Assembly: GCF_030811455.1 (NCBI RefSeq)
Contig: NZ_JAUSQU010000001.1
Span: 7,440,001-7,504,000 of the forward strand
Origin: Streptosporangium lutulentum
Lineage (GTDB): Bacteria; Actinomycetota; Actinomycetes; Streptosporangiales; Streptosporangiaceae
Direction of reading: 5' to 3'
Length of the DNA stretch: 64,000 nucleotides
This document shows, in pieces, positions 10,386 to 58,839 of this stretch; positions within the stretch are counted from its first letter, which is position 1; every line of letters begins with the position of its first letter. The translations under genes were made by a program, and so were the position numbers. Under the pieces are notes generated by a model, which searched no databases, had not been told where the DNA came from, and saw only the letters and a list, made by a program, of their open reading frames with translations.

Positions 10386-11576
10386 CTACCGGATCTCGGC
10401 CAGGTCGATCATGTAAAGGTCGTCCCCGAGTGTGTAGCTGAGGAGTCTGCCGGTCGAATCCTCGGACGGCAGGGTTATGAAGGAGCCCTCCCCTCGAATA
10501 CCCAGGTAGCCCGATTCACCGGTGTTCAGGTCGTACAGTCCCACGCCCTCGAACTTCTCATCGCCGTATGCCGAGACGTAGAAGCGATCCTGAGTCGGCG
10601 GGATCGCGCTGGACACCCTGGTAGGCACCATCTTCTGTGAGGAGCCGTCCCGATGCCGGAAGAAGGTCTGGAATTCCGAGGTGGTGCCCAGGCAGATGGT
10701 CACGCCACAGGATCGGATCACCTCGCCGGGGTGGGTGACGGCGGCTCTGGTCTCGCCGGTCTCCACGTTCAGGATTCGGGCGAACACGGTGCCTTTGGGC
10801 TCGCCTCCTCTCCCCGGCGTGCCGATCCACGGCCAGGACAGCAGATGCATCCCGGTGCCTCCCTCGACCGGTTCCACCGTGCCGCCCTCCAAGGGGACGG
10901 AGAAGACCCCGCCCGTGTAGAGCGAGAAAACAATCTTGCCGTTGGCCACGGTGAGATTGTCGATCCCGCTGCCGTCCCCCTCCTTGATGCTCTGGTCGGC
11001 GACGATCTTCGCCGTCCCACCGTCCACCGGCACGGCCCAAAGGTGTGCGACGCGGTCCTTCGTCGAGGTCCACCACACCACGTGTCCGTCGCCCACGGCG
11101 AAGCCGTTGGCGGCGCCCGCCGGGCTCTCGGGCGACGGCAGGTCAGCGATCTTGCGCCGCGAGTCGCCGTCGAGGTCGTAGGCGTAGACGGCGGTCGGCT
11201 GGTCGAACCCCGCCGGAGCCGTCACGAGCAGCGTACGGTCGTCGATGAACGTCTCCGGTCGCCATGACGCCCCGTCGGGCCCCTTCGCCGGGACCTTCCG
11301 CACCGCCTCCGGCCAGACCTTCTCCACGTGCTCGGCCGGCGTCGCGGCACGCGCCTCCGAAGCGGTCGTGGTCGTCATGACGTCGCCGCCGGGCACCACG
11401 GCGACGGCCCCGCCCGCGACCAGCACGACCGCCGCGGCGGCCAGCGCCACCCGGGTCCGCCGCCTCCTGCGCCGGTGGATCCGCTCAAGCCGCTCAGGCA
11501 GCAGGGCGGGCAGGCGGGGCGCCTGCCCGGCGGCCTGGCCGAACGTCCTGCGAAGAGTCTCCTCAACCTCGGTCAT
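10386..11576 (-). CDS. Membrane-anchored beta-propeller-like partner of a SigE-family sigma factor
   Basis: A 396-residue protein with a short cytoplasmic N-terminus (MTEVEETLRRTFG), an Arg-rich stretch, one membrane segment (~40-60, VALAAAAVVLVAGGAVAVV) and a long extracytoplasmic domain. That domain has repeated strands such as 'GGHVVWW', 'LWAVPVDGGTAKIV' and 'VFSVPLEGGTVEPV', suggesting a TolB/WD40-like propeller. Its ATG overlaps the sigma-factor stop (ATGA), so the two are translationally coupled. Topology and coupling suggest an anti-sigma or sensor role, although no zinc-binding anti-sigma motif is visible. The organisation repeats at 56921-58839. Confidence 0.78.
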   Translation of the reverse strand: MTEVEETLRRTFGQAAGQAPRLPALLPERLERIHRRRRRRTRVALAAAAVVLVAGGAVAVVPGGDVMTTTTASEARAATPAEHVEKVWPEAVRKVPAKGPDGASWRPETFIDDRTLLVTAPAGFDQPTAVYAYDLDGDSRRKIADLPSPESPAGAANGFAVGDGHVVWWTSTKDRVAHLWAVPVDGGTAKIVADQSIKEGDGSGIDNLTVANGKIVFSLYTGGVFSVPLEGGTVEPVEGGTGMHLLSWPWIGTPGRGGEPKGTVFARILNVETGETRAAVTHPGEVIRSCGVTICLGTTSEFQTFFRHRDGSSQKMVPTRVSSAIPPTQDRFYVSAYGDEKFEGVGLYDLNTGESGYLGIRGEGSFITLPSEDSTGRLLSYTLGDDLYMIDLAEIR

Positions 11577-12073
11577 CGTACGTTCCCCCTGGTCATCGGC
11601 TTGGTCGGAACAGCGCCGCGGAGCTTGTCGAGCGCGCGGGCGGCCTGGCTGCGTACCGTGCCGCGCGAGATCCCGAGTACGGCGGCGATCTCGGCGTCGT
11701 CGAGTTGCTCGTAGTAGCGCAGCACCAGCACCGCGCGCTGCTTGCGCGGCAGACCGGCCAGCGCCTGCCACATCCTTCGCTCGTCGCCGCTGGGCAGCGA
11801 GTCGTGGTGCTCGCGCTCCGGCAGATCCCAGGCGAGCTGCTCGCGTTTGCGTAATCGCCAGGTGGCGATGTGCAGCCTGGCCATCGTGGTACGGGCGTAG
11901 CTCTCCGGGTTCTCCTTCGAGTGCAATCGATGCCAGGCGCCGCGCAGCTTCAGCAGCGCCTCCTGGACCAGGTCGGCCGCGTCATGCGGATTGCCGGCCA
12001 GCATGTAGCCGTAGCGCAGCAGCGCGTCGCCGCGTTCGGCGACGAACTCCGCGAAACGGGGATCAGCTTCCAA
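11573..12073 (-). CDS. SigE-family RNA polymerase sigma factor (ECF type)
   Basis: A 166-residue sigma-70 family protein. Region 2 (FVAERGDALLRYGYMLAGNPHDAADLVQEALLKL) and region 4 (LPRKQRAVLVLRYYEQLDDAEIAAVLGISRGTVRSQAARALDKLR) are intact and carry the sequence style of the actinobacterial SigE-like ECF group. It is followed by, and overlaps, its membrane partner gene. It would direct RNA polymerase to stress-type promoters; targets are unknown. Confidence 0.92.
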   Translation of the reverse strand: MEADPRFAEFVAERGDALLRYGYMLAGNPHDAADLVQEALLKLRGAWHRLHSKENPESYARTTMARLHIATWRLRKREQLAWDLPEREHHDSLPSGDERRMWQALAGLPRKQRAVLVLRYYEQLDDAEIAAVLGISRGTVRSQAARALDKLRGAVPTKPMTRGNVR

Positions 12074-12349
12074 CAGCCCTTGCCTTTCGTCGGTCCTTCA
12101 CCTCTGAGAGGGGCCAGGGGCGGAAACTGTTGCATGAAGAGACTCTTCACCTCGAACCGAGCCTGCTCGCGAAGGATCCGGCGGAGTCCGTCGCCGGGCC
12201 GGGCGCGGCGTCCGATCGGCCGGGCTCACCGAGCCGATCGTGGCCCCGGCGCTGGAGACCGTACACGCCCGAACCCGGCCGGCGGCGGTCAGGTCGCGCA
12301 CGGCGCCTGCGTCGGCCTGGGTTGCCTGCCCGCGTCTCGGGAACGAGGA

Positions 12350-19203: not shown

Positions 19204-20214
19204 TCAGGGGATTCGCCACAACTTCGCGGTATCGTCCTTGCTGCCGGTGGCGAGGGTCGTTCCGTCCGGGCTGAAGGCCACCGACATGACAGCGCCGGCG
19301 TGGCCGGTGAAGGTGGCGACGGTTGTGCCGCTGTCCACGTTCCACAGCCGCGCGGTCCTGTCGAGGCTGCCGGTGGCGAGGGTCGTTCCGTCCGGGCTGA
19401 AGGCCACCGACATGACAGCGCCGGCGTGGCCGGCGAGGGTGGCGGTGGCTGTACGGCCGGCCACATCCCACAACCGCACCACGCCTCTTGACGGCGACGA
19501 GTTCTCTTCCCTGCCGCCGGTGGCGAGGGTCGTCCCGTCCGGGCTGAAGGCCACCGAGTCGACAGTGCCAGTGCCGGTGGGGATGGCGGTGGCGGTGGTT
19601 GTGCGGCCGGCCACATCCCACAACCGCACCGTGCCTTCGGCGTGGTCGCTGCTGCCGACGGCGACGGTCGCCCCGTCCGGGCTGAAAGCCACCGAGAGGA
19701 CGGTGCCGGTGAGGCCGGTGAGGGTGGCGGTGGCTGTGCGACCGGCCACGTCCCACAACTGCGCCGTCCTGGCATTCCCGCCGGTGGCGAGGGTCGTCCC
19801 GTCCGGGCTGAAGGCCATACTCCAGACGAGGTCGGTGCGGCCGGTGAAGGCGGCGATGGTTTCGCGACTGGCCACGTCCCACAACCGCACCGCGCCGTCG
19901 CTCTCACCGCAGGCGGCGAGGGTTCTCCCGTCCGGGCTGAAGGCCACCGACACGACAGTGCCGTCGTAGTCGGTGAAGGCGGCGATGGTTTCGCCGCTGT
20001 CCACGTCCCACAACCACACCTCGCCGTTCTGGCTGCCGGTGGCGAGGGTCGTTCCGTCCGGGCTGAAAGCTACCGAGCCGACAGTGGCCGTGTGGCCGGT
20101 GAGGGTGGGAGTGCGGGTAAGGGCGATCGCGACCGGCACCCCGACGGCGGTCACGCCGAGGACCCCGAGCCCGGCCATGAGCAGGACCTTGCGCCGCGGC
20201 AGAGAGCGACCCAT
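19204..20214 (-). CDS. Seven-bladed WD40 protein with N-terminal membrane/Tat-like anchor
   Basis: A 336-residue protein. The N-terminus MGRSLPRRKVLLMAGLGVLG has an Arg-Arg pair before a hydrophobic helix (~10-35), as in Tat signals or signal anchors. Seven WD40 blades follow, each with a variant of 'VxSVAFSPDGTTLATGS....LWDV', completing a propeller. Several blades are nearly identical in DNA (e.g. around 19250 and 19370), implying recent internal duplication. The chosen ATG overlaps the stop of a short upstream frame (TAATG). It is probably an extracytoplasmic scaffold; no enzymatic domain is present. Confidence 0.85.
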   Translation of the reverse strand: MGRSLPRRKVLLMAGLGVLGVTAVGVPVAIALTRTPTLTGHTATVGSVAFSPDGTTLATGSQNGEVWLWDVDSGETIAAFTDYDGTVVSVAFSPDGRTLAACGESDGAVRLWDVASRETIAAFTGRTDLVWSMAFSPDGTTLATGGNARTAQLWDVAGRTATATLTGLTGTVLSVAFSPDGATVAVGSSDHAEGTVRLWDVAGRTTTATAIPTGTGTVDSVAFSPDGTTLATGGREENSSPSRGVVRLWDVAGRTATATLAGHAGAVMSVAFSPDGTTLATGSLDRTARLWNVDSGTTVATFTGHAGAVMSVAFSPDGTTLATGSKDDTAKLWRIP

Positions 20215-20423
20215 TACGCGACCCACGCTGCCACGGCGGCGGAAAACCCCAGCACGCCGACCCCGTCGCGCGACCAACGGGTGAAAGCGGTGAACGCCTC
20301 GACAATCCGACCACCGCCGAAGCGTTCGGCGAGATCCTCACGCGGCAGACCGACCGGCACCGGCGGTACGAGATCCTCGCGGTCCCGCCAGACCCCGCCC
20401 CTGCCGCCACCCACCTCGATCAC
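20214..20423 (-). CDS. Possible small coupled gene upstream of the WD40 gene
   Basis: A 69-residue frame starting GTG whose TAA overlaps the WD40 start codon (TAATG). The overlap is its main support. The protein (MIEVGGGRGGVWRDREDLVP..., Trp/Arg-rich) has no recognised motif. It could also be the degraded 3' end of a longer gene formerly fused upstream of the propeller. Confidence 0.35.
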   Translation of the reverse strand: MIEVGGGRGGVWRDREDLVPPVPVGLPREDLAERFGGGRIVEAFTAFTRWSRDGVGVLGFSAAVAAWVA

Positions 20424-20894: not shown

Positions 20895-21335
20895 ATGAAA
20901 ACCAACACGCGCACCACGACCGAGCCGGCACTCCTCAACGACCCCCGCACCCAGGAAGCCTTCGACACGGCGAAGAGCGGCATCAAGATTTACGCCGCAC
21001 TCAGCGCCGTCGCCCTTCTGGCGATCATCGTGGTGTCGAGCAGCGGTCATACGATCAACACGTTCATGTGGGTCCGGGCGATCCTGCTGCCTGTGATCGC
21101 GGTGCTGTTCTACCGGATGACCGTCTCCGCTTCCCGGGGATCTCGACGGGCCTTCGAGCGCGTGAGCGTCCTCACCGTCACCGTGCCGATCGCGATCATC
21201 GCCGTCGACCTGATCCCGGGTGTCTGCCCGCCGTGGTACGCCGTCACGCAGGCCGTCTGCATGCTGCCCATCATCCGGGTCGCGTTCGTCACCCGTGGCT
21301 CCGTACTGCGCGCCGCCTTCCCCACGTCACGCTGA
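20895..21335 (+). CDS. Small four-helix membrane protein
   Basis: A 146-residue protein with four hydrophobic segments: IYAALSAVALLAIIVVSS, MWVRAILLPVIAVLFY, VLTVTVPIAIIAVDLI, and VTQAVCMLPIIRVAFV. A short soluble N-terminus precedes them. The ATG at 20895 is chosen because the upstream part of the frame is implausible. No family recognised; the final residues are basic. Confidence 0.72.
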   Translation: MKTNTRTTTEPALLNDPRTQEAFDTAKSGIKIYAALSAVALLAIIVVSSSGHTINTFMWVRAILLPVIAVLFYRMTVSASRGSRRAFERVSVLTVTVPIAIIAVDLIPGVCPPWYAVTQAVCMLPIIRVAFVTRGSVLRAAFPTSR

Positions 21336-21472
21336 CCCCTCAGCTCCTGCGTGCTTCCCGAACGCGAACCGCACCCACGACGGTTCGACGGCCTTGGCGT
21401 AACGAAGGCATCGTTCACGGCCGCATCAAGCCGGAACACGGGAAGCCGCTCGATCGGGTCGCGTTCGCCTCG

Positions 21473-22147
21473 TCAACCACGAGACCGGCCGGCGGGCGGC
21501 GTGATTCGCACCCGCTCCTCCTCAGGGCGGCTGTCGATGTCGTCGAGTTGCTCGCGGACCGTCTTCTGCAGGTCCTCGTAGTCCCGGAAGTAGTAGTCGT
21601 TGAACAGGGTGTAGCCGGTCCACATCAGGTTGGCGCACACCCTCGGCGGCACCCGGCCCGTCGCCACGCCCATGCCGACCAGCGCCACCGACCCGACGCT
21701 GCCCGGCTCCTTCTCGTTCTGCATGTGAATGGCCTGAAACGCGGCGGCGCACGCCAGCGCCACGTTCAGCGTCTCACTCACGTTCTGCACCGACTGCACC
21801 ATCGTCGGCGTCGAGATCAGGAACTTCGGGTTGGTCGCCCCCGACGGCACGCACACGGCACTTCCCACCGGCAGCGACCCTCCGAACTGATCGCGGATCG
21901 CCCGCTGGACGCGCAACTGGATCCCCGCCCCGAGGTGACGCTTGATGGCCGCGTCGACCCCACCGTCCATCCGTCCGCGGGAGTTGGTCGGGTTGACCCA
22001 GGCGTCGACGTGCCGGGTGAGGATCGACCCCTTGTAGATCTCGACCTCGGGGACGTCGGCGAACGCCGCTCGCCACTCCTGCACCACTTTCGCGTTGATG
22101 TCCACCAGCACCACCTTGAGCGGCGGCTTCATGTGTTCGACAGTCAT
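21473..22147 (-). CDS. Macro-domain protein (ADP-ribose binding or hydrolysing)
   Basis: A 224-residue protein. Residues ~35-70 carry the macro-domain core: a strand before 'VDAWVNPTNSRGRMDGGVDAAIKRHLG', the NPTN...GGVDAAI loop that holds ADP-ribose. A second loop, VALVGMGVATGRVPPRV, resembles the phosphate-binding G-x-G-x-x-x-G segment. Macro domains bind ADP-ribose and many remove it from proteins or DNA. It is divergent from the UDG-ADP-ribosyltransferase gene 316 bp away, an arrangement resembling writer/eraser pairs such as DarT/DarG. The functional link is inference. Confidence 0.85.
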   Translation of the reverse strand: MTVEHMKPPLKVVLVDINAKVVQEWRAAFADVPEVEIYKGSILTRHVDAWVNPTNSRGRMDGGVDAAIKRHLGAGIQLRVQRAIRDQFGGSLPVGSAVCVPSGATNPKFLISTPTMVQSVQNVSETLNVALACAAAFQAIHMQNEKEPGSVGSVALVGMGVATGRVPPRVCANLMWTGYTLFNDYYFRDYEDLQKTVREQLDDIDSRPEEERVRITPPAGRSRG

Positions 22148-22328
22148 GGCTCACTCCGGGCGCAGGGGGTGGTTCCAACGTCCACGAAGATATCGCTCCA
22201 CACCGACAAATCTGATCTTGTCTGGAGATTCAGGAACGATCTCCGCGCCTGCGGACGCATCGACTCCGGGCCTCCCCGCCCCGGGCCTTCCGCGGACCAG
22301 GCCTTACGGTGAACCGGCGCTCACGACA

Positions 22329-22363
22329 GGAAAGCCCACCCGCTGGAAGGGGGTGGGCTTTCC
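22329..22363. terminator. Strong 13-bp hairpin in the divergent macro/ART intergenic region
   Basis: Perfect stem GGAAAGCCCACCC/GGGTGGGCTTTCC with a 9-nt loop. No annotated gene ends here: it is 100 bp upstream of the UDG-ART start and ~180 bp upstream of the macro gene. It could be an attenuator in the ART leader, the terminator of an unseen small RNA, or a relic. Confidence 0.65.
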
Positions 22364-22463
22364 GGTTCTCCGACATCGCATTCTGGATCTTCGCACGGCA
22401 CAATTCCCCCACCTCAATCACCTGTGCCGTCACCGGTACGACTCCCCGATCCAGGAATTCACG

Positions 22464-24081
22464 ATGAGCGACGTCAACGCCCCCACCCCGCCCGACCCGA
22501 GTGACCCGCTGGCCCTCGCCGAACTCTTCAAGGGCGGTGGCGAGCCGTGGCTGCCGCTCTTGAAGCCGGTCATCGAGGCGCAGCCGGCCGCGGCCACGTT
22601 CATCGGTCCGGGCCGCAGCCCGGAGGTCGTGCCCATCCGGGAACTGACCTTCCAAGCGCTCAAGCCCAATCCGCTGCACAAGTGGAAGGTCGTCGTCTTC
22701 GGCCAGAACCCGTACCCGCGGGCCGAGAGTGCCACCGGCATCGCCATGTTCGACAACACCTTCCACGACTGGAACGACAGCCAGTTCGGCAGGGTCATCA
22801 CCATCCGCTGCATCATCAAGGCGGCGGCGATGTGGAAGCACGGCGTCCCCCAAGAAGACGCCGATCGCCGACATCCGCGCACTCCTGAAAAAGCAGGACA
22901 CCGTGCAGCCGCCGGAGTGGTTCCAGGCGATGCTCACGCAGGGCGTGTTGCTGTTGAACGCGGCGCTCACCGCCAGCGGCGACGGGGCGATGGCCACCGA
23001 CCGGCACACCGCGTTCTGGCGACCGGTCGTCGAGAAGCTCATCGAGGAGATCCTGAAGGCCAAGCAGAACGCCGACGAGAAGGACCGGGGCGTGGTGTTC
23101 GCGTGGTGGGGAGCTCACGCCCGCAGCCTGAAAGAGGTCGTGCTCCGGCTCCAGCAGAAGTACCCCGAGGTGGAGGTCCTGCACATCGACCACCCCAACC
23201 CCGCGGCACAGGGCGACATCTTCTGCGACGGGAACCATTTCGCCGCCGTGAACACGGCACTCAAAATGCTCGGGGCCGACGAGATCGACTGGCTGCCCGG
23301 CAAGGGGTGGAACACGCTCGCGGCGCAAGCCGGCGGGGCGGACGCGGACACCGCCGACCGCATGGGGGCGTTCATCGCCTCCACGATGGAGTTGCACAAG
23401 CTCTACCTCGAACGGCTCGCCGGCGTCAAAGACGAGGGGCTGGAACTTCCGGCGATCACCGGCGTGTTCGACACCCCGCTCATGGACTTCCGCGAGGCCG
23501 GCGCCCCGGTGGCCAAGCTGCTGTCGGGTCTCGACCGGCACATGGAGCAGTCGTACCTGTTCGGCGAGAAGCACGCGGACGGCGCGGCCGACAGCCTGTC
23601 CGCCGACGAGATCGCGGCCCTCTATCTCTACACCTGCGAGTCGGGGTTCTACCGGCAGATCAACGCCATCCTGCGCCACCCGGACCGCACCCGGATCGTC
23701 CCCTACCTCCCGTATCTGCGACTCCTGTTCTCGGCCGTGTCGCGCCTGCCGGCCCGCAAGGAGCCGCTGTGGCGCGGGGTGTCGCTGGACCTGCGCGCGC
23801 AGTACCCTCTCGGCCGAACCGTGACGTGGTGGGGCGTGTCCTCGTGTACGTCGAGTCTCAGCGTGGCCCAGACGTTCCTCGGCCACCGCGGCAAGCGGAC
23901 GCTCTTCGAGGTGCTCCCCCTGCGGGCCGTGGGCATCCGCGGTTTCTCCGCGTTCACCGGTGAGGAGGAGTTCATCCTCGCCCCCGGCACGCAGCTCAAG
24001 GTGACCGACGTGAAGGCCGAACGCGGTGGCCTGTACACCGTGAAGCTGACCGAACTGGCCGAGCAGCACCTGGTGGCGTGA
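22464..24081 (+). pseudogene. Uracil-DNA-glycosylase-like domain fused to ADP-ribosyltransferase, with one-base frameshift
   Basis: Restoring one base in the C5 run at 22847-22851 gives a 538-residue protein. Residues ~70-290 match family-1 UDG: motif GQNPYP (80-85; canonical GQDPYH, so the catalytic Asp is Asn), LLLNAALT, VFAWWGAHA, and HPNPAAQGDIF...GNHFAAVN (canonical HPSP...HF). The rest (~300-538) matches arginine-type mono-ADP-ribosyltransferases: a helical N-lobe with 'LYLYTCESGFYRQINAILR', then WRG (R), SSCTSS (S-T-S) and GEEEFILAPGT (ExE). All R-S-E elements survive. The upstream part starts at the ATG of MSDVNAP. The defect may be real, a sequencing error or programmed slippage. It is divergent from the macro gene. 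Confidence 0.85.
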
Positions 24082-24105
24082 GCGGCGGAGGGTGTCTCCG
24101 TTCAT

Positions 24106-24151
24106 GAAGCTCCGGCGGCCCGGCGACAACGCTCCGGGCCGCTGGAGCTTC
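24106..24151 (+). terminator. Terminator after the UDG-ART gene
   Basis: Stem GAAGCTCC and GCGGCCCGG pairing with CCGGGCCGC and GGAGCTTC (17 pairs with one G-T) around a 10-nt loop, 24 bp after the stop. Confidence 0.75.
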
Positions 24152-24310
24152 GTGTCCACCGGCCCGCGACGCCTGCACCAGGGGTCGGCGGATCTCCCGT
24201 CCGCTGCTCGCATCGCGATGCGGGGATGACGCCGCTACTCCGTACGAGGCAGGCGCCGTGGCGTCATAACACCCTGCGCGCGGGCCGTCCTCACCGGGAG
24301 AAGGTCGCGA

Positions 24311-25141
24311 TCATCGGTGAACGTCACCCAGAAACCGCCGCGCACCACGCAGCCTGGTCCGAAGCCGCCGCTGAGTCATGCCGCACTCCAGGCGCACGTC
24401 CATCGGGCCGGGCACGTTGGTGTCCGCTCGCCGGCCCGAAGGCAGTCGGTCCGCGTCGAGTCCGTCACGTCGGGCGATGAGCAGCCCGAGCTCGTATCGG
24501 CTCACCGCGTCGGCTCCGGCGACATGGTGGATGCCGTGATACTCGGATGCGGCAAGTTCGAGGAGCGCCGCGGCGAGATCGACGACATGTACAGGACATC
24601 GCACGTCGTCGGTGAACAGCACTCCTCCTGCCCTGCCGGTGGCCAGTGAACGCACCAGCGCCTCGTGCGAGGAGTCACCGTCACCGATGATCAGGGATGT
24701 CCGGGCTATCACCGCGGTTGGCGCGATCGCGTTCACCGCTGTCTCGGCAGCGGCTTTGGCCGCACCATACGGGGTGATCGGGTCAGGGAGACACGTCTCG
24801 TCATAGCGAATCGCGGCGCCGGAGAAGACCGCGTCGCTGGACACCTGGACCAGGCGCCCACCTGCCGCGGAGACGGCGAGAGCCACGTTCGCGGCTCCCA
24901 CCGCCGTGATCATCCAGTCTGTCTGCCGATACGCGGCGTTGATGACCACCTCTGGTCGAAACGCGCTGATCAGCGCATCGACGTCGTCTCGTCGACGCAC
25001 ATCGAGCGGCAACCACTCGACGCCCGCGGTCTCTCCTGGTCGGGTCAGGTAGGTCGCAGCCACCTCATGCTCGGCCATCGAACACTGCCGAGCGAGTTCG
25101 CCGCCGAGAAAACCGCTGCCACCGACGATGAGGAATCTCAT
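24311..25141 (-). CDS. RmlD-like NAD(P)-dependent sugar-nucleotide reductase/epimerase-type SDR
   Basis: A 276-residue extended-SDR protein. GGSGFLGGELARQ (7-19) is the NAD(P) Rossmann loop. VINAAY is followed by VQVSSDAVFSG and TPYGAAKAAAE, giving the Ser and Tyr-x-x-x-Lys of the active site. Best resemblance is to dTDP-4-dehydrorhamnose reductase-like proteins. Without neighbouring rml genes the substrate is open. It is convergent with the UDG-ART gene. Confidence 0.85.
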   Translation of the reverse strand: MRFLIVGGSGFLGGELARQCSMAEHEVAATYLTRPGETAGVEWLPLDVRRRDDVDALISAFRPEVVINAAYRQTDWMITAVGAANVALAVSAAGGRLVQVSSDAVFSGAAIRYDETCLPDPITPYGAAKAAAETAVNAIAPTAVIARTSLIIGDGDSSHEALVRSLATGRAGGVLFTDDVRCPVHVVDLAAALLELAASEYHGIHHVAGADAVSRYELGLLIARRDGLDADRLPSGRRADTNVPGPMDVRLECGMTQRRLRTRLRGARRFLGDVHR

Positions 25142-25413: not shown

Positions 25414-27702
25414 TCAGCGCCCGGTTGCCGCGCCAGGTCCGTCTAGCTCCTCGAGTTCCATGACCACCTCGGCGGCTTGCTCGGTTTCACCGCATATCTC
25501 CAACAGTCGTAGCCCTTCCGTCAACGCCTGGCGGGCCTCCTCGATCCGGCCCAGGTGCCGTAGCGCGGTGCCCAGCCTGCGCTGAATGCGCCCCACGATT
25601 ATGTCGATTGAACTGGTCTGCAACTCGGACAGCGCCTGGTCGAAGGCGTCGACCGCCTCCTCCCAGCGTTCGAGCGTGAGGTAGGCGGTGCCGACCTCGC
25701 GCAGGGCGATCCCGAGACAGTGGGTGATGAGGGCCGGGGAACCGCCGTATTCGGGGTCACGCAACGTAGTCACAAGTGCGAGGCTGTGCTTCAAGGCTTC
25801 TTCTACCCGGCCCGCCAGCCGCAGGACGTTGATATAGCTTGCCATCGCCTGGGGATAGCGATCCAGGTCCCCTGCCTGGAGGAGAAGATCAGCGGCTCGC
25901 CGGTTGTAGTCCAGCGACCGCTCCATGCTCGCCGGCTCCATCCTCGCCTGCTCCAGGCTCGCCGAGCCGGCACAATTCAGCGCCTGTCCCTGCAGACGTA
26001 GATCGCCGGCCTCGCGGGCCAGCTCCAGCGCCCGCAACGCGGTCGCCTCCCCCTCCTCATTACGGCCTTCGCACGCGGACAGCGCCCAGCACAAGAGGTT
26101 GAGATGCACCGCCTCCCGCCGCGGGTCGCCCAGGGCGTGTGCCGCACCTGCGGACAGCTCGAACACCTCGCTCCAGTGCCCCCACGCGATCCAATGGTCG
26201 GAGAACCAGTGCATGGACTCGGCCATTTCGACCACCGTCGCGTGCTCTCCACGCCGAGCCACTGAGCGCAGCGCCTCCAGCCAGGCCGTGTCCTCCGTCT
26301 GCAGCCAGTCGGCGGCTTCCTGCCGGCTGTCGAGCGCGACCAGGGAGTACCACTCCGGTGGCGGCGCGCCGTAGCCCGGCTCGAACCAGCGCCCCGCCAC
26401 CGTGGCCACCTCCAGTAGCCAGTCCTCCATCCGCAGGCGCGCCGCTTGCCGCGCCTCGATCGGCTCCTCCTGCTCCAGCTGGGCGCGCGCATAGAGCCGG
26501 ACCAGGTCGTGGAAGACATAACGCCCGGCGTACGGCGAGGTCAGCAGGCCCAGCTCGACCAGCTCCTCCAGCGCGTCCTCGGCCTCGAACACATCCACCT
26601 GGGTCAAGACGGCGGCCAGCGGCACCCCGAACTCCGGCGCGGCCGCCAGCGCCAGCCGCCGGAAGCTGCATCGCGCCGTCCCGGTCAATTGCCGGTAGGA
26701 CAGCGCGAACGCGGCGGCCACTGCCAGGTCCCCGGCCGCCAGGGCCTCCAACCGGCGCCCTTCATCTCCCAAACGGCCTGCCAGCTGGCTGACCGTCCAG
26801 CCTGGCCGGCTCTGCAGCCGGTTCCCGGCGATCCGTACGGCCAGCGGCAGGTGGCCGCACAGCCGGGCCAGCTCGGCCACGCCGTCCGGGTCGTTCTCGG
26901 TCCGTTCCGCGCCCACGATCTCCCGTAGTAGCCCGGCCGTCTCATCACCGGTCAGCTGGGCGAGCGGGATCTGCCGCACCCCTTCCAGCCCGGCCAGCGA
27001 ACGGCGGCTGGTGACGATCGTCATCCCGGGACCACCGGACGGGAGAAGGGGACGCACCTGTGCCTCGTGCGCGGCGTTGTCCAGCACGATCAGGCACCGT
27101 CGGTCACTCAGCAGGGTCCGATAGAACCCGGCCTGCTCTTCCTCATCGCCCGGAATCCGCTGTTCGGCCACGCCCAATGCCTTCAGCAGCCGCGACAGCA
27201 CCGCCCCCGGGGCCGGTGGGGCGCTGTCCATGCCGCGCAGGTCCACGTAGAAGCGGCCGTCAGGGAACATCTCGGCCAGGTGCCGGGCGGCGTGCACGGC
27301 CAGAGCCGTCTTGCCGATCCCGGCAGTGCCGGAGATAGTGGCCACCATCGCAGGCTCCCCGGACCTGGCCTGCTCAGCGAGCCGGCGCAGCAGATCGAGC
27401 TCCCTCACGCGACCGGTGAAATCACCCGTTCCGTACGGCAGCTCACACGTGCCCGGCACCGGGCCACTCGGCCGCGGCCGGCCCGCCCTGGCGGCCTCGA
27501 CCAGCTCCGCCTGTTGCTCGTCGCCGAGCCCCAAGGCTTCGGCCAGTTCCTGCACCGTGCGCTGTTGCGGGCCGCGGCTGACGCCCCGCTCCATGTTCCC
27601 GATGGCCCGTACGCTCACGCCGGAGGCGTGGGACAGCTCTTCGATCGTCAACTTCGCGTCCTGCCGCAAGCTTCGCAGGAGCGACCCGAACGAGCCGACC
27701 AT
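25414..27702 (-). CDS. XRE HTH - NB-ARC - TPR (STAND) regulator
   Basis: A 762-residue protein. It has an N-terminal Cro/C1 HTH (7-62; LTIEELSHASGVSVRAIGNMERG), then an NB-ARC ATPase with Walker A GTAGIGKTALA (~125-135), Walker B CLIVLDNA (~205) and LPLAVRIAGNRL (the GxP-type motif, ~285). A winged-helix segment and many TPR-like helices follow (~480-750). Related proteins regulate secondary metabolism or act as ATP-dependent sensors. The HTH sits at the N-terminus in place of a SARP domain. It lies just inside the diverged tRNA fragment, consistent with accessory DNA. Confidence 0.9.
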   Translation of the reverse strand: MVGSFGSLLRSLRQDAKLTIEELSHASGVSVRAIGNMERGVSRGPQQRTVQELAEALGLGDEQQAELVEAARAGRPRPSGPVPGTCELPYGTGDFTGRVRELDLLRRLAEQARSGEPAMVATISGTAGIGKTALAVHAARHLAEMFPDGRFYVDLRGMDSAPPAPGAVLSRLLKALGVAEQRIPGDEEEQAGFYRTLLSDRRCLIVLDNAAHEAQVRPLLPSGGPGMTIVTSRRSLAGLEGVRQIPLAQLTGDETAGLLREIVGAERTENDPDGVAELARLCGHLPLAVRIAGNRLQSRPGWTVSQLAGRLGDEGRRLEALAAGDLAVAAAFALSYRQLTGTARCSFRRLALAAAPEFGVPLAAVLTQVDVFEAEDALEELVELGLLTSPYAGRYVFHDLVRLYARAQLEQEEPIEARQAARLRMEDWLLEVATVAGRWFEPGYGAPPPEWYSLVALDSRQEAADWLQTEDTAWLEALRSVARRGEHATVVEMAESMHWFSDHWIAWGHWSEVFELSAGAAHALGDPRREAVHLNLLCWALSACEGRNEEGEATALRALELAREAGDLRLQGQALNCAGSASLEQARMEPASMERSLDYNRRAADLLLQAGDLDRYPQAMASYINVLRLAGRVEEALKHSLALVTTLRDPEYGGSPALITHCLGIALREVGTAYLTLERWEEAVDAFDQALSELQTSSIDIIVGRIQRRLGTALRHLGRIEEARQALTEGLRLLEICGETEQAAEVVMELEELDGPGAATGR

Positions 27703-58327: not shown

Positions 58328-58839
58328 CACACGTTCCTCATCTCAAGGGCGACCGCCCGGACTCTGAGCTTGTTCAGCGCACGGGCCGCCTGGCTGCGCA
58401 CCGTGCCGCGTGAGATTCCGAGGAACTCGGCGATCTCCTGGTCGGAGAGGTCCTCGTAGTAGCGCAGGACCAGCACCGCCCGCTGTTTGGGCGGCAGCCC
58501 CTTCAGTTCCTTCCACAGGCCGGTGTCATCGGTGAAGCGATCTTCGATGTAGGCGACCTCGGGCACCACCGCGACCAGGCGTTCCCTGCGTAATCGCCGC
58601 CAGACGCTGATGTGCAGGCGGGCCATGGTCGTGCGGACGTACCCCTCCGGGTCGTCCCTTTTTCTGATCTTGGGCCACGCGTCCCCCAGGCGCATCAGCG
58701 CTTCCTGCGTCAGGTCGGCCGCGTCCTCGGCGTTGCCGGTGAGCACGTAGCCGTACCGGTACAACGCGCCTCCCCGCACGGCGACGAAATCAGTGAACTC
58801 CACGGACCAGGGACGCACGAGGGGTTCGTTCTGTTGCAT
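58327..58839 (-). CDS. SigE-family sigma factor (paralogue)
   Basis: A 170-residue ECF-type sigma. Region 2 FVAVRGGALYRYGYVLTGNAEDAADLTQEALMRLGDAW and region 4 LPPKQRAVLVLRYYEDLSDQEIAEFLGISRGTVRSQAARALNKLR are very like the protein at 11573-12073. The ATG at 58839 (MQQNEP) has GGGGAAAGCGG upstream. It is followed by its membrane partner. Confidence 0.9.
   Translation of the reverse strand: MQQNEPLVRPWSVEFTDFVAVRGGALYRYGYVLTGNAEDAADLTQEALMRLGDAWPKIRKRDDPEGYVRTTMARLHISVWRRLRRERLVAVVPEVAYIEDRFTDDTGLWKELKGLPPKQRAVLVLRYYEDLSDQEIAEFLGISRGTVRSQAARALNKLRVRAVALEMRNV

What the first reader, a model, noticed from the sequence alone, without database searches (positions are those of the whole stretch)
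21473..24081. Divergent macro-domain / UDG-ADP-ribosyltransferase pair: candidate new ADP-ribosylation system
Seen: a UDG-family-1-like domain with GQNPYP and HPNP motifs joined to an arginine-type ADP-ribosyltransferase with R, S-T-S and ExE elements, next to a macro-domain protein. Known: DarT/DarG pairs use an ADP-ribosyltransferase and a macro antitoxin on DNA, and UDG-fold proteins recognise DNA bases. Inference: the fusion may target ADP-ribosylation to DNA or to a DNA-bound partner, with the macro protein as eraser or antitoxin, possibly for phage defence. I do not know of a described system with this fusion.
Basis: partly seen in the sequence, partly recalled or inferred. Interest (0 to 1): 0.87.

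Follow-up and report, generated by a model that had tools for sequence, protein, structure and literature searches.

The report
Damage-induced ADP-ribose writer and eraser
A small mobile pair of bacterial genes joins a DNA-base-reading domain to an enzyme that attaches ADP-ribose, next to a macro gene that probably removes it and sits under a DNA-damage promoter, which suggests an undescribed reversible marking system tied to DNA damage.

The parts
21421..24168 (.). mobile two-gene cassette (outer limits of DNA homology to related loci)
   Evidence: blastn of the 64-kb window against 14 loci of close relatives: homology next to the genes starts between 21421 and 21519 and stops between 24081 and 24168 (L108 is the window's own genome)
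21473..22147 (-). macro-domain gene, 224 aa; predicted ADP-ribose binder or hydrolase (eraser/antitoxin)
22187..22209 (-). RecA-NDp-like (PafBC-type) DNA-damage promoter of the macro gene, 39 nt upstream of its start codon
   Evidence: one of 10 exact matches to TTGTCRGTGN{8,9}TANNNT in the whole 10.64-Mb genome, reversed-pattern control 1; conserved in position in relatives
22464..22850 (+). UDG-ART gene, N-terminal part of the UDG-like domain (first reading frame)
   Evidence: NCBIfam Ung E 1.7e-7; 91% identical to P0003 residues 1-132
22840..22860 (+). zone of the frame change in this copy
   Evidence: the two frames' homology meets here; absent in 80 of 80 related loci
22855..23307 (+). 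C-terminal part of the UDG-like domain (second frame), with LLLN and HPNP motifs
23428..24081 (+). ADP-ribosyltransferase domain (R-S-ExE type), ends at the stop codon
22701..22718 (+). GQNPYP: UDG motif with Asn where canonical family-1 UDG has the catalytic Asp
   Evidence: column N 23, S 9, T 2, A 2 of 36 letters, never D
23191..23202 (+). HPNP motif of the UDG-like domain
   Evidence: His in 41 of 48 letters in A1
23773..23775 (+). ART catalytic Arg codon
   Evidence: R in 38 of 38 letters
23839..23853 (+). ART SSCTS motif
   Evidence: both leading Ser in 38 of 38 letters
23962..23970 (+). ART ExE motif (EEE)
   Evidence: both outer Glu in 37 of 37 letters

Best explanation
It is a mobile, DNA-damage-linked, reversible ADP-ribosylation cassette. 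SHOWN by sequence: a UDG-fold domain and an R-S-ExE ADP-ribosyltransferase domain in one protein family; a macro-domain partner that travels with it and is sometimes fused to it; a conserved RecA-NDp-like promoter in front of the macro gene (and of the whole unit where the genes are co-directional or fused). INFERRED: the UDG-like domain, which has lost the catalytic Asp and the DNA-wedge Leu but keeps the base pocket, reads or anchors on DNA bases rather than cutting them out; this places the ART at damaged or unusual DNA, where it puts ADP-ribose on a target, most likely an arginine of a DNA-bound protein, less likely the DNA itself; the macro protein removes or masks the ADP-ribose, and its induction by DNA damage switches the mark off and limits the harm. 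The window's own copy is broken in the UDG part, or mis-assembled there, and keeps an intact macro gene.
Against: No activity, target or induction was measured. In divergent loci the promoter motif faces UDG-ART in only 10 of 67, and not in the window, so damage control is firm only for the macro gene. Ten of 67 divergent loci, including the close relative L002, score below 11. Four of the 10 genomic matches lie before copies of one IS605/TnpB-type gene, so the pattern is not specific to repair genes. An ExE ART is expected to modify arginine, while most characterised macrodomain hydrolases do not cleave arginine-ADP-ribose (recalled; the exception is the DUF4804 class, PMC10951314), so writer and eraser do not match chemically in an obvious way. 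Asn at the Asp position is compatible with weak glycosylase activity, as in other UDG families (recalled). The letters of the RecA-NDp consensus are recalled; the papers seen name it without letters.
Confidence: 0.5

Rival explanations
1. A DarTG-like toxin-antitoxin pair: UDG-ART is a toxin that ADP-ribosylates DNA bases, using base recognition by the UDG-like domain, and the macro protein is the antitoxin; the DNA adduct itself triggers the damage response that induces the antitoxin. It would serve growth control or phage defence.
For: Obligate pairing; patchy, mobile cassette. Among 10 Streptosporangium carriers, three UDG-ART copies are damaged (window; G396 lacks residues 76-248; G400 is a remnant of both genes) while the macro gene is intact in two of the three, as expected if the writer is costly and the eraser needed only with it. 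DarT/DarG and SCO6735 act on thymidine-ADP-ribose in DNA (PMC9411070, passages).
Against: No DarT or other PADLOC model hits the fusion, and DarG only weakly hits the macro (E 0.012). ExE predicts arginine. Writer and eraser in one polypeptide is unusual for a toxin-antitoxin pair. No phage or viral contig carries the fusion. The three damaged copies are few and one may be an assembly error.
Confidence: 0.25
2. A base-excision repair enzyme: the UDG-like domain is an active glycosylase of altered specificity, and the ART marks the repair site or the enzyme itself.
For: Tyr, Asn and His of the pocket are mostly kept (33 of 35, 46 of 49, 41 of 48); fold as in active UNGs; damage promoter.
Against: The catalytic-Asp column is Asn, Ser, Thr or Ala in 36 of 36 letters and the wedge Leu is Ala in 44 of 47; His is Tyr in the choanoflagellate member.
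Confidence: 0.12
3. A phage-defence decoy: the UDG-like domain binds phage-made UDG inhibitors or uracil-containing phage DNA and thereby unleashes the ART, with the macro protein as immunity.
For: The domain has the family-1 UNG fold, and several of the solved UNGs matched are bound to UDG-inhibitor proteins; patchy distribution.
Against: No defence neighbours shared by 10 or more loci, no PADLOC hit for the fusion, and the regulation points to DNA damage. Inhibitor binding was not modelled.
Confidence: 0.06
4. For the window copy only: a dead or assembly-damaged gene whose intact relatives do whatever the family does; the macro gene is a left-over antidote.
For: Frame change near 22840-22860, absent in 80 of 80 related loci; two further damaged copies in the genus.
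Against: One frame change in an otherwise well-kept gene (93% identity over the second part) also fits a sequencing or assembly indel; reads were not available.
Confidence: 0.5

Closest known systems
DarT/DarG (DNA ADP-ribosyltransferase and macrodomain antitoxin)
   Same: ART writer next to a macro partner, link to DNA
   Different: Fusion has a UDG-fold domain and an R-S-ExE ART matched by no PADLOC model, DarT included; the macro hits the DarG model only at E 0.012; damage promoter on the macro gene; writer and eraser can be one protein
SCO6735, macrodomain hydrolase of Streptomyces coelicolor
   Same: macrodomain protein under a RecA-NDp promoter, in an actinomycete (PMC5087735 and PMC9411070, passages)
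   Different: stands beside an amino-acid permease gene, no UDG-ART partner mentioned in the passages seen; TARG1/ALC1-like, whereas this macro has a MacroD-like GGVD loop
Tre1/Tri1 and other ART-ARH effector/immunity pairs
   Different: partner is a macrodomain instead of an ARH-type protein; UDG-like domain; damage promoter instead of a secretion context
PARP1-type lesion-activated ADP-ribosylation with macrodomain erasers
   Same: DNA-reading module coupled to an ART and countered by macro proteins; relatives of this ART are fused to WGR and PARP_reg
   Different: ART is R-S-ExE (ARTC-like, Pfam ART), not the PARP catalytic domain; reader is a UDG fold; lesion activation is not shown
SirTM-macrodomain operons
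   Same: linked ART and macrodomain, stress-induced (PMC7050489, passages)
   Different: ART is a sirtuin, target is lipoylated GcvH-L, stress is oxidative
Family-1 uracil-DNA glycosylase (UNG)
   Different: catalytic Asp column N/S/T/A, wedge Leu column mostly Ala, ART fused behind it

Membership tests
DarTG | ART recognised as DarT | tested here: not met
   P0003, P0006 and the window ART piece hit no PADLOC model at E <= 1
DarTG | macrodomain recognised as DarG | tested here: inconclusive
DarTG | thymidine or guanine ADP-ribosylation of DNA | not testable with these tools
   needs a biochemical assay
Family-1 UDG (Ung) | overall fold | tested here: met
Family-1 UDG (Ung) | profile match above curated cut-off | tested here: not met
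   NCBIfam Ung models match P0003 at E 2.4e-22 but 80 bits against a cut-off of 162; Pfam UDG 18.7 bits against 24.3
Family-1 UDG (Ung) | catalytic Asp in GQDPY (recalled) and Leu wedge in HPSPL (recalled) | tested here: not met
   Asp column N 23, S 9, T 2, A 2; wedge column Ala 44 of 47. Residue equivalence by motif spacing, not by a residue-level alignment to a solved UNG
R-S-ExE ADP-ribosyltransferase (Pfam ART, arginine type) | Pfam ART match and R, S, ExE residues | tested here: met
R-S-ExE ADP-ribosyltransferase (Pfam ART, arginine type) | arginine as acceptor | not testable with these tools
   motif rule only (recalled)
MacroD-type macrodomain | N-x6-GG[VLI]D signature (recalled) | tested here: met
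   N55 to D65 reads N-x6-GGVD in the window protein; N55, G62, G63 and D65 invariant in 31 sequences
MacroD-type macrodomain | second loop G[VIA][YF]G (recalled) | tested here: not met
   the loop reads ATGRVP in the window protein, with T163, G164, V166 and P167 invariant
DUF4804 arginine-specific macrodomain (MavL/Larg1 class) | motifs [VIL]xGxGxGx[FWY] and WDxx[SA]xPGN[DE] (PMC10951314, passage) | tested here: not met
   not present by reading the window macro protein; Pfam lists only Macro PF01661 for it
RecA-NDp (PafBC) regulon | promoter motif at a fixed place before the gene | tested here: met
   57 of 67 divergent and 10 of 10 co-directional loci for the macro gene; 1 of 1340 flank windows
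RecA-NDp (PafBC) regulon | induction by DNA damage through PafBC | not testable with these tools
   needs expression data
PARP | PARP catalytic domain | tested here: not met
   Pfam finds ART PF01129 in the window piece and P0003, no PARP family

The most novel reading that the evidence does not exclude
A DNA-base reader made from a uracil-DNA glycosylase that has given up base cutting steers an ADP-ribosyltransferase to lesions: a PARP-like lesion-marking system of bacteria, built from other parts, with its macro eraser under the DNA-damage promoter, sometimes all in one polypeptide, and shared with protists (choanoflagellate, haptophyte, probably dinoflagellate) by gene transfer.
Probability: 0.3. 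Interest if true: 0.92.

Novelty: new variant of a known kind. Interest (0 to 1): 0.78.

Why it matters
Bacterial ADP-ribosylation writer/eraser pairs known so far (DarTG, SirTM-macro, ART-ARH effector pairs) lack a base-recognition module. This family supplies one, ties the eraser to the main actinobacterial DNA-damage promoter, and gives natural fusions that state the partnership outright. If the lesion-targeting reading is right, it is a bacterial counterpart of PARP signalling that evolved from different parts, and it makes the question of what actinomycetes ADP-ribosylate after DNA damage directly testable with two purified proteins.

Tried and rejected
Phage defence: PADLOC gave nothing for the fusion; tblastn of the fusion in 50,697 phage records gave 38 records, none covering 80% of the query, the 20 listed covering only the UDG part at 24-28% identity; a scan of viral contigs gave no relative. 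Macro relatives do occur in phages (22 records, 27-38% identity), so this is not absence of all parts.

SCO6735 orthology: rejected for this macro because SCO6735 lies by an amino-acid permease gene and is TARG1-like (PMC9411070, passages); no sequence comparison with SCO6735 was run.

LexA box: GAACNNNNGTTC with one substitution allowed (so not exact boxes) appeared in 6 of 67 intergenic regions, the window included, and at varied places; not pursued. A first regex for the RecA-NDp motif in the same call was loose and is superseded.

Programmed frameshift: rejected as a family trait, since 80 of 80 relatives are in one frame. Whether the window frame change is biological or an assembly indel could not be decided.

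Sigma-70 consensus promoters: none found in 21300-24300; 3 weak terminator-like stems inside genes against 1.2 expected. Rfam: no match in 21000-25000.

Gene transfer by tree: the UDG-ART tree needs 24 label changes for 15 genera, minimum 14, with unsettled bootstrap; suggestive only. The cassette-border test is the better evidence. L002 also had two weak matches (about 70%) to window 10813-12112 and 58367-58798, far from the cassette.

Print search: no held open-access paper combines the terms (0, 1, 0, 1, 0, 0 and 8 listed, the hits not about this fusion by title and abstract start). Subscription reviews of ADP-ribosyltransferase natural history (recalled) are not in the library and could mention such a fusion. 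Databases already label members 'ADP-ribosyltransferase domain-containing protein' or 'uracil DNA glycosylase'.

VIA-align absences: no family is called excluded because it is missing.

Full report
WHAT IS IN THE WINDOW. The window is 64 kb of a 10.64-Mb genome in 3 contigs, Streptosporangium-like by its nearest hits. At 21473-22147 (-) lies an intact macro gene (Pfam Macro E 2.2e-12). From 22464 (+) runs the UDG-ART gene. Its first part, to about 22850, and its second part, from about 22855 to 24081, are in different frames. The second part alone has 922 relatives; the 120 listed all cover it completely and are 484-558 aa long, the best 93% identical and named from Streptosporangium roseum. 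In 80 related genome loci (the best 80 of 226) the gene is in one frame without stops in 80 of 80, and the macro gene without stops in 78 of 78.

ACTIVE SITES. In alignment A1 (55 rows, many of them fragments) the ART residues are unbroken: Arg 38 of 38, both leading Ser 38 of 38, outer Glu 37 of 37. The UDG site is remodelled: the catalytic-Asp column is N 23, S 9, T 2, A 2 and never D; the Leu-wedge column is Ala in 44 of 47; the Phe column is M 30, H 6, L 1; the pocket Tyr is kept in 33 of 35, Asn in 46 of 49, His in 41 of 48. Equivalences rest on motif spacing and on recalled numbering. I read this as a base reader, possibly a weak or altered glycosylase. The macro protein keeps a GGVD loop (D65 invariant in 31 sequences) but not the usual second glycine loop.

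ONE UNIT. The macro gene is next to UDG-ART in 78 of 80 loci; in the other two the contig ends at the UDG start. It is divergent in 68 and co-directional in 10. In 345 genomes of the class, 11 hold UDG-ART and the same 11 hold the macro gene (E <= 1e-30). In 16 genomes of the genus, 10 hold UDG-ART matches and 9 the macro; the tenth, G400, keeps only remnants of both. Macro, UDG and ART form one open frame in L069 and L077 (772 and 784 aa) and in an 801-aa annotated plasmid protein; all three parts share one frame in L083 and L084, whose genomes report the same open-frame length for both queries (850 and 923), as do G666 and G690. Partial proteins P0144, P0179 and P0183 also join macro and UDG. 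Distances of the two proteins correlate at r 0.69 over 78 loci.

MOBILE AND PATCHY. In 81 loci no gene family other than overlapping frames of the cassette itself recurs in 10 or more (ORFs of 100 aa or more, flanks up to 8 kb, several loci shorter). The fusion is in 3 of 396 phylum genomes (the other 45 matches at E <= 1e-3 cover only part, mostly the UDG region) and 11 of 345 class genomes. It lies on a 335-kb Streptomyces plasmid and on three very large records of the plasmid set, one of 11.85 Mb. No phage record covers 80% of it and no viral contig was found.

BEYOND ACTINOMYCETES. Searches with the UDG and ART parts found members in a Planctomycetota MAG (P0131, 70%), an acidobacterium (P0145, 58%), a Sandaracinaceae MAG (P0293, ART part, 50%), the choanoflagellate Salpingoeca rosetta (P0142, 61%), a Prymnesium record (P0175, 52%) and several algal transcripts (P0162, P0181, P0203); P0200 is probably from a dinoflagellate (name recalled). 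ART is found by Pfam in P0142 (E 2.4e-5) and P0181 (E 2.6e-13). P0142 has a lysine-rich start and lacks the Arg-bearing stretch of the ART; its gene model may be incomplete. ART relatives of 37-43% identity are fused to PARP_reg, most of them with WGR as well; named examples are from Aphanomyces, and Pfam here confirms the architecture in P0313 and P0320. Contamination in transcript sets was not excluded.

REGULATION. The commonest 8-10-mers between the divergent genes in 67 loci were TTGTCAGTGG and its complement, which I recognised as the -35 half of the RecA-NDp promoter (letters recalled; passages of PMC5087735, PMC6789036 and PMC8223512 name the promoter and its PafBC control without letters). 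A fixed 12-position score gave >= 11 towards the macro gene in 57 of 67 (28 of them 12), median 42 nt before its start; 0 of 1340 dinucleotide shuffles and 1 of 1340 flank windows of equal length reached 11. All 10 co-directional loci score 12, 38-40 nt before the macro start. Towards UDG-ART the score reached 11 in 10 of 67, not in the window (8). The ten divergent loci below 11 towards the macro gene are L002, L019, L021, L039, L042, L044, L045, L052, L064 and L071. In the whole genome the exact pattern occurs 10 times, reversed control once: the macro gene (22187-22209), uvrB, a uvrD-type helicase, a NUDIX gene, four near-copies of a TnpB-type gene, and two genes without Pfam match. Thus the motif is rare and marks repair genes, but not only these. 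SCO6735 of S. coelicolor, another macro gene, has this promoter and rises five-fold after UV (PMC5087735, passages).

MECHANISM. The best-supported picture is a damage-linked writer and eraser: the UDG fold brings the ART to DNA, the ART marks a target, the macro protein, made when DNA is damaged, removes or masks the mark. Shown: the parts, their conserved pairing, natural fusion, mobility, promoter motif. Inferred: DNA reading, transfer, removal, induction. Two points cut against a simple story. ExE ARTs modify arginine while most characterised macro hydrolases do not act there (recalled), so either the macro is unusual, the target is not arginine, or the macro only binds. And in most divergent loci only the eraser is visibly damage-controlled, which also suits a toxin whose own DNA adducts call up the antidote. 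The damaged writers beside an intact eraser in the window and G396 lean that way; the one-polypeptide forms lean the other way. I give 0.5 to the lesion-linked cassette and 0.25 to a DarTG-like toxin-antitoxin pair.

NOVELTY. Seven paper searches with the relevant terms found no description; subscription reviews were out of reach. Each part belongs to a known kind, and writer/eraser pairs are known, so I rate it a new variant of a known kind; the PARP-like reading would be more. Papers: passages only for PMC9411070, PMC5087735, PMC11833690, PMC13036486, PMC6789036, PMC8223512 and PMC7050489; abstract and passages for PMC10951314; all others as search listings.

Noticed in passing
P0313, P0314, P0318-P0320, P0322, P0325: Relatives of this ART fused to PARP_reg, most also to WGR, in oomycetes (Aphanomyces) and unnamed sources: an R-S-ExE ART where a PARP catalytic domain is usual.
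   Followed up: partly
P0316, P0317: Relatives of this ART in the rotifer Adineta steineri, fused to MORN repeats.
   Followed up: no
P0142, P0162, P0175, P0181, P0200, P0203: Protist relatives of the UDG-like domain, some with the ART; the choanoflagellate one has a lysine-rich start.
   Followed up: partly
phage records H40-H61; phrog_2613 E 6e-39: The nearest phage relatives of the macro protein (27-38% identity) are in Sinorhizobium phages such as phiM12 and, next to tail-fibre genes, in Salmonella phages SEN4/SEN5 and Gifsy-1.
   Followed up: no
window about 22330-22368: An inverted repeat (aaagcccaccc/gggtgggcttt) lies between the two divergent genes; L004 and L002 have a similar stretch. 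Not reported by the terminator scan.
   Followed up: no
L092, L093, L097, L099: Four near-copies of a TnpB/IS605-type gene in this genome carry an exact RecA-NDp-like motif just upstream.
   Followed up: partly
L111 (G396) and L112 (G400): Two more damaged cassettes in the genus: one with the middle of the UDG part missing beside an intact macro gene, one reduced to remnants of both genes.
   Followed up: partly
P0134 and P0229: In Micromonospora zhanjiangensis the UDG part and the ART part are annotated as separate proteins on contigs of the same length (7366819), another possibly split copy.
   Followed up: no
window 19204-20277 (-) and 25414-27702 (-): Flanking genes: a seven-WD40-repeat protein and an HTH/NB-ARC/TPR regulator; neither recurs beside the cassette in relatives.
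   Followed up: no
G000:C1:5970944-5971261: The genome has another UDG-like gene, matched at 37% over residues 28-148 of the query, probably its ordinary Ung.
   Followed up: no
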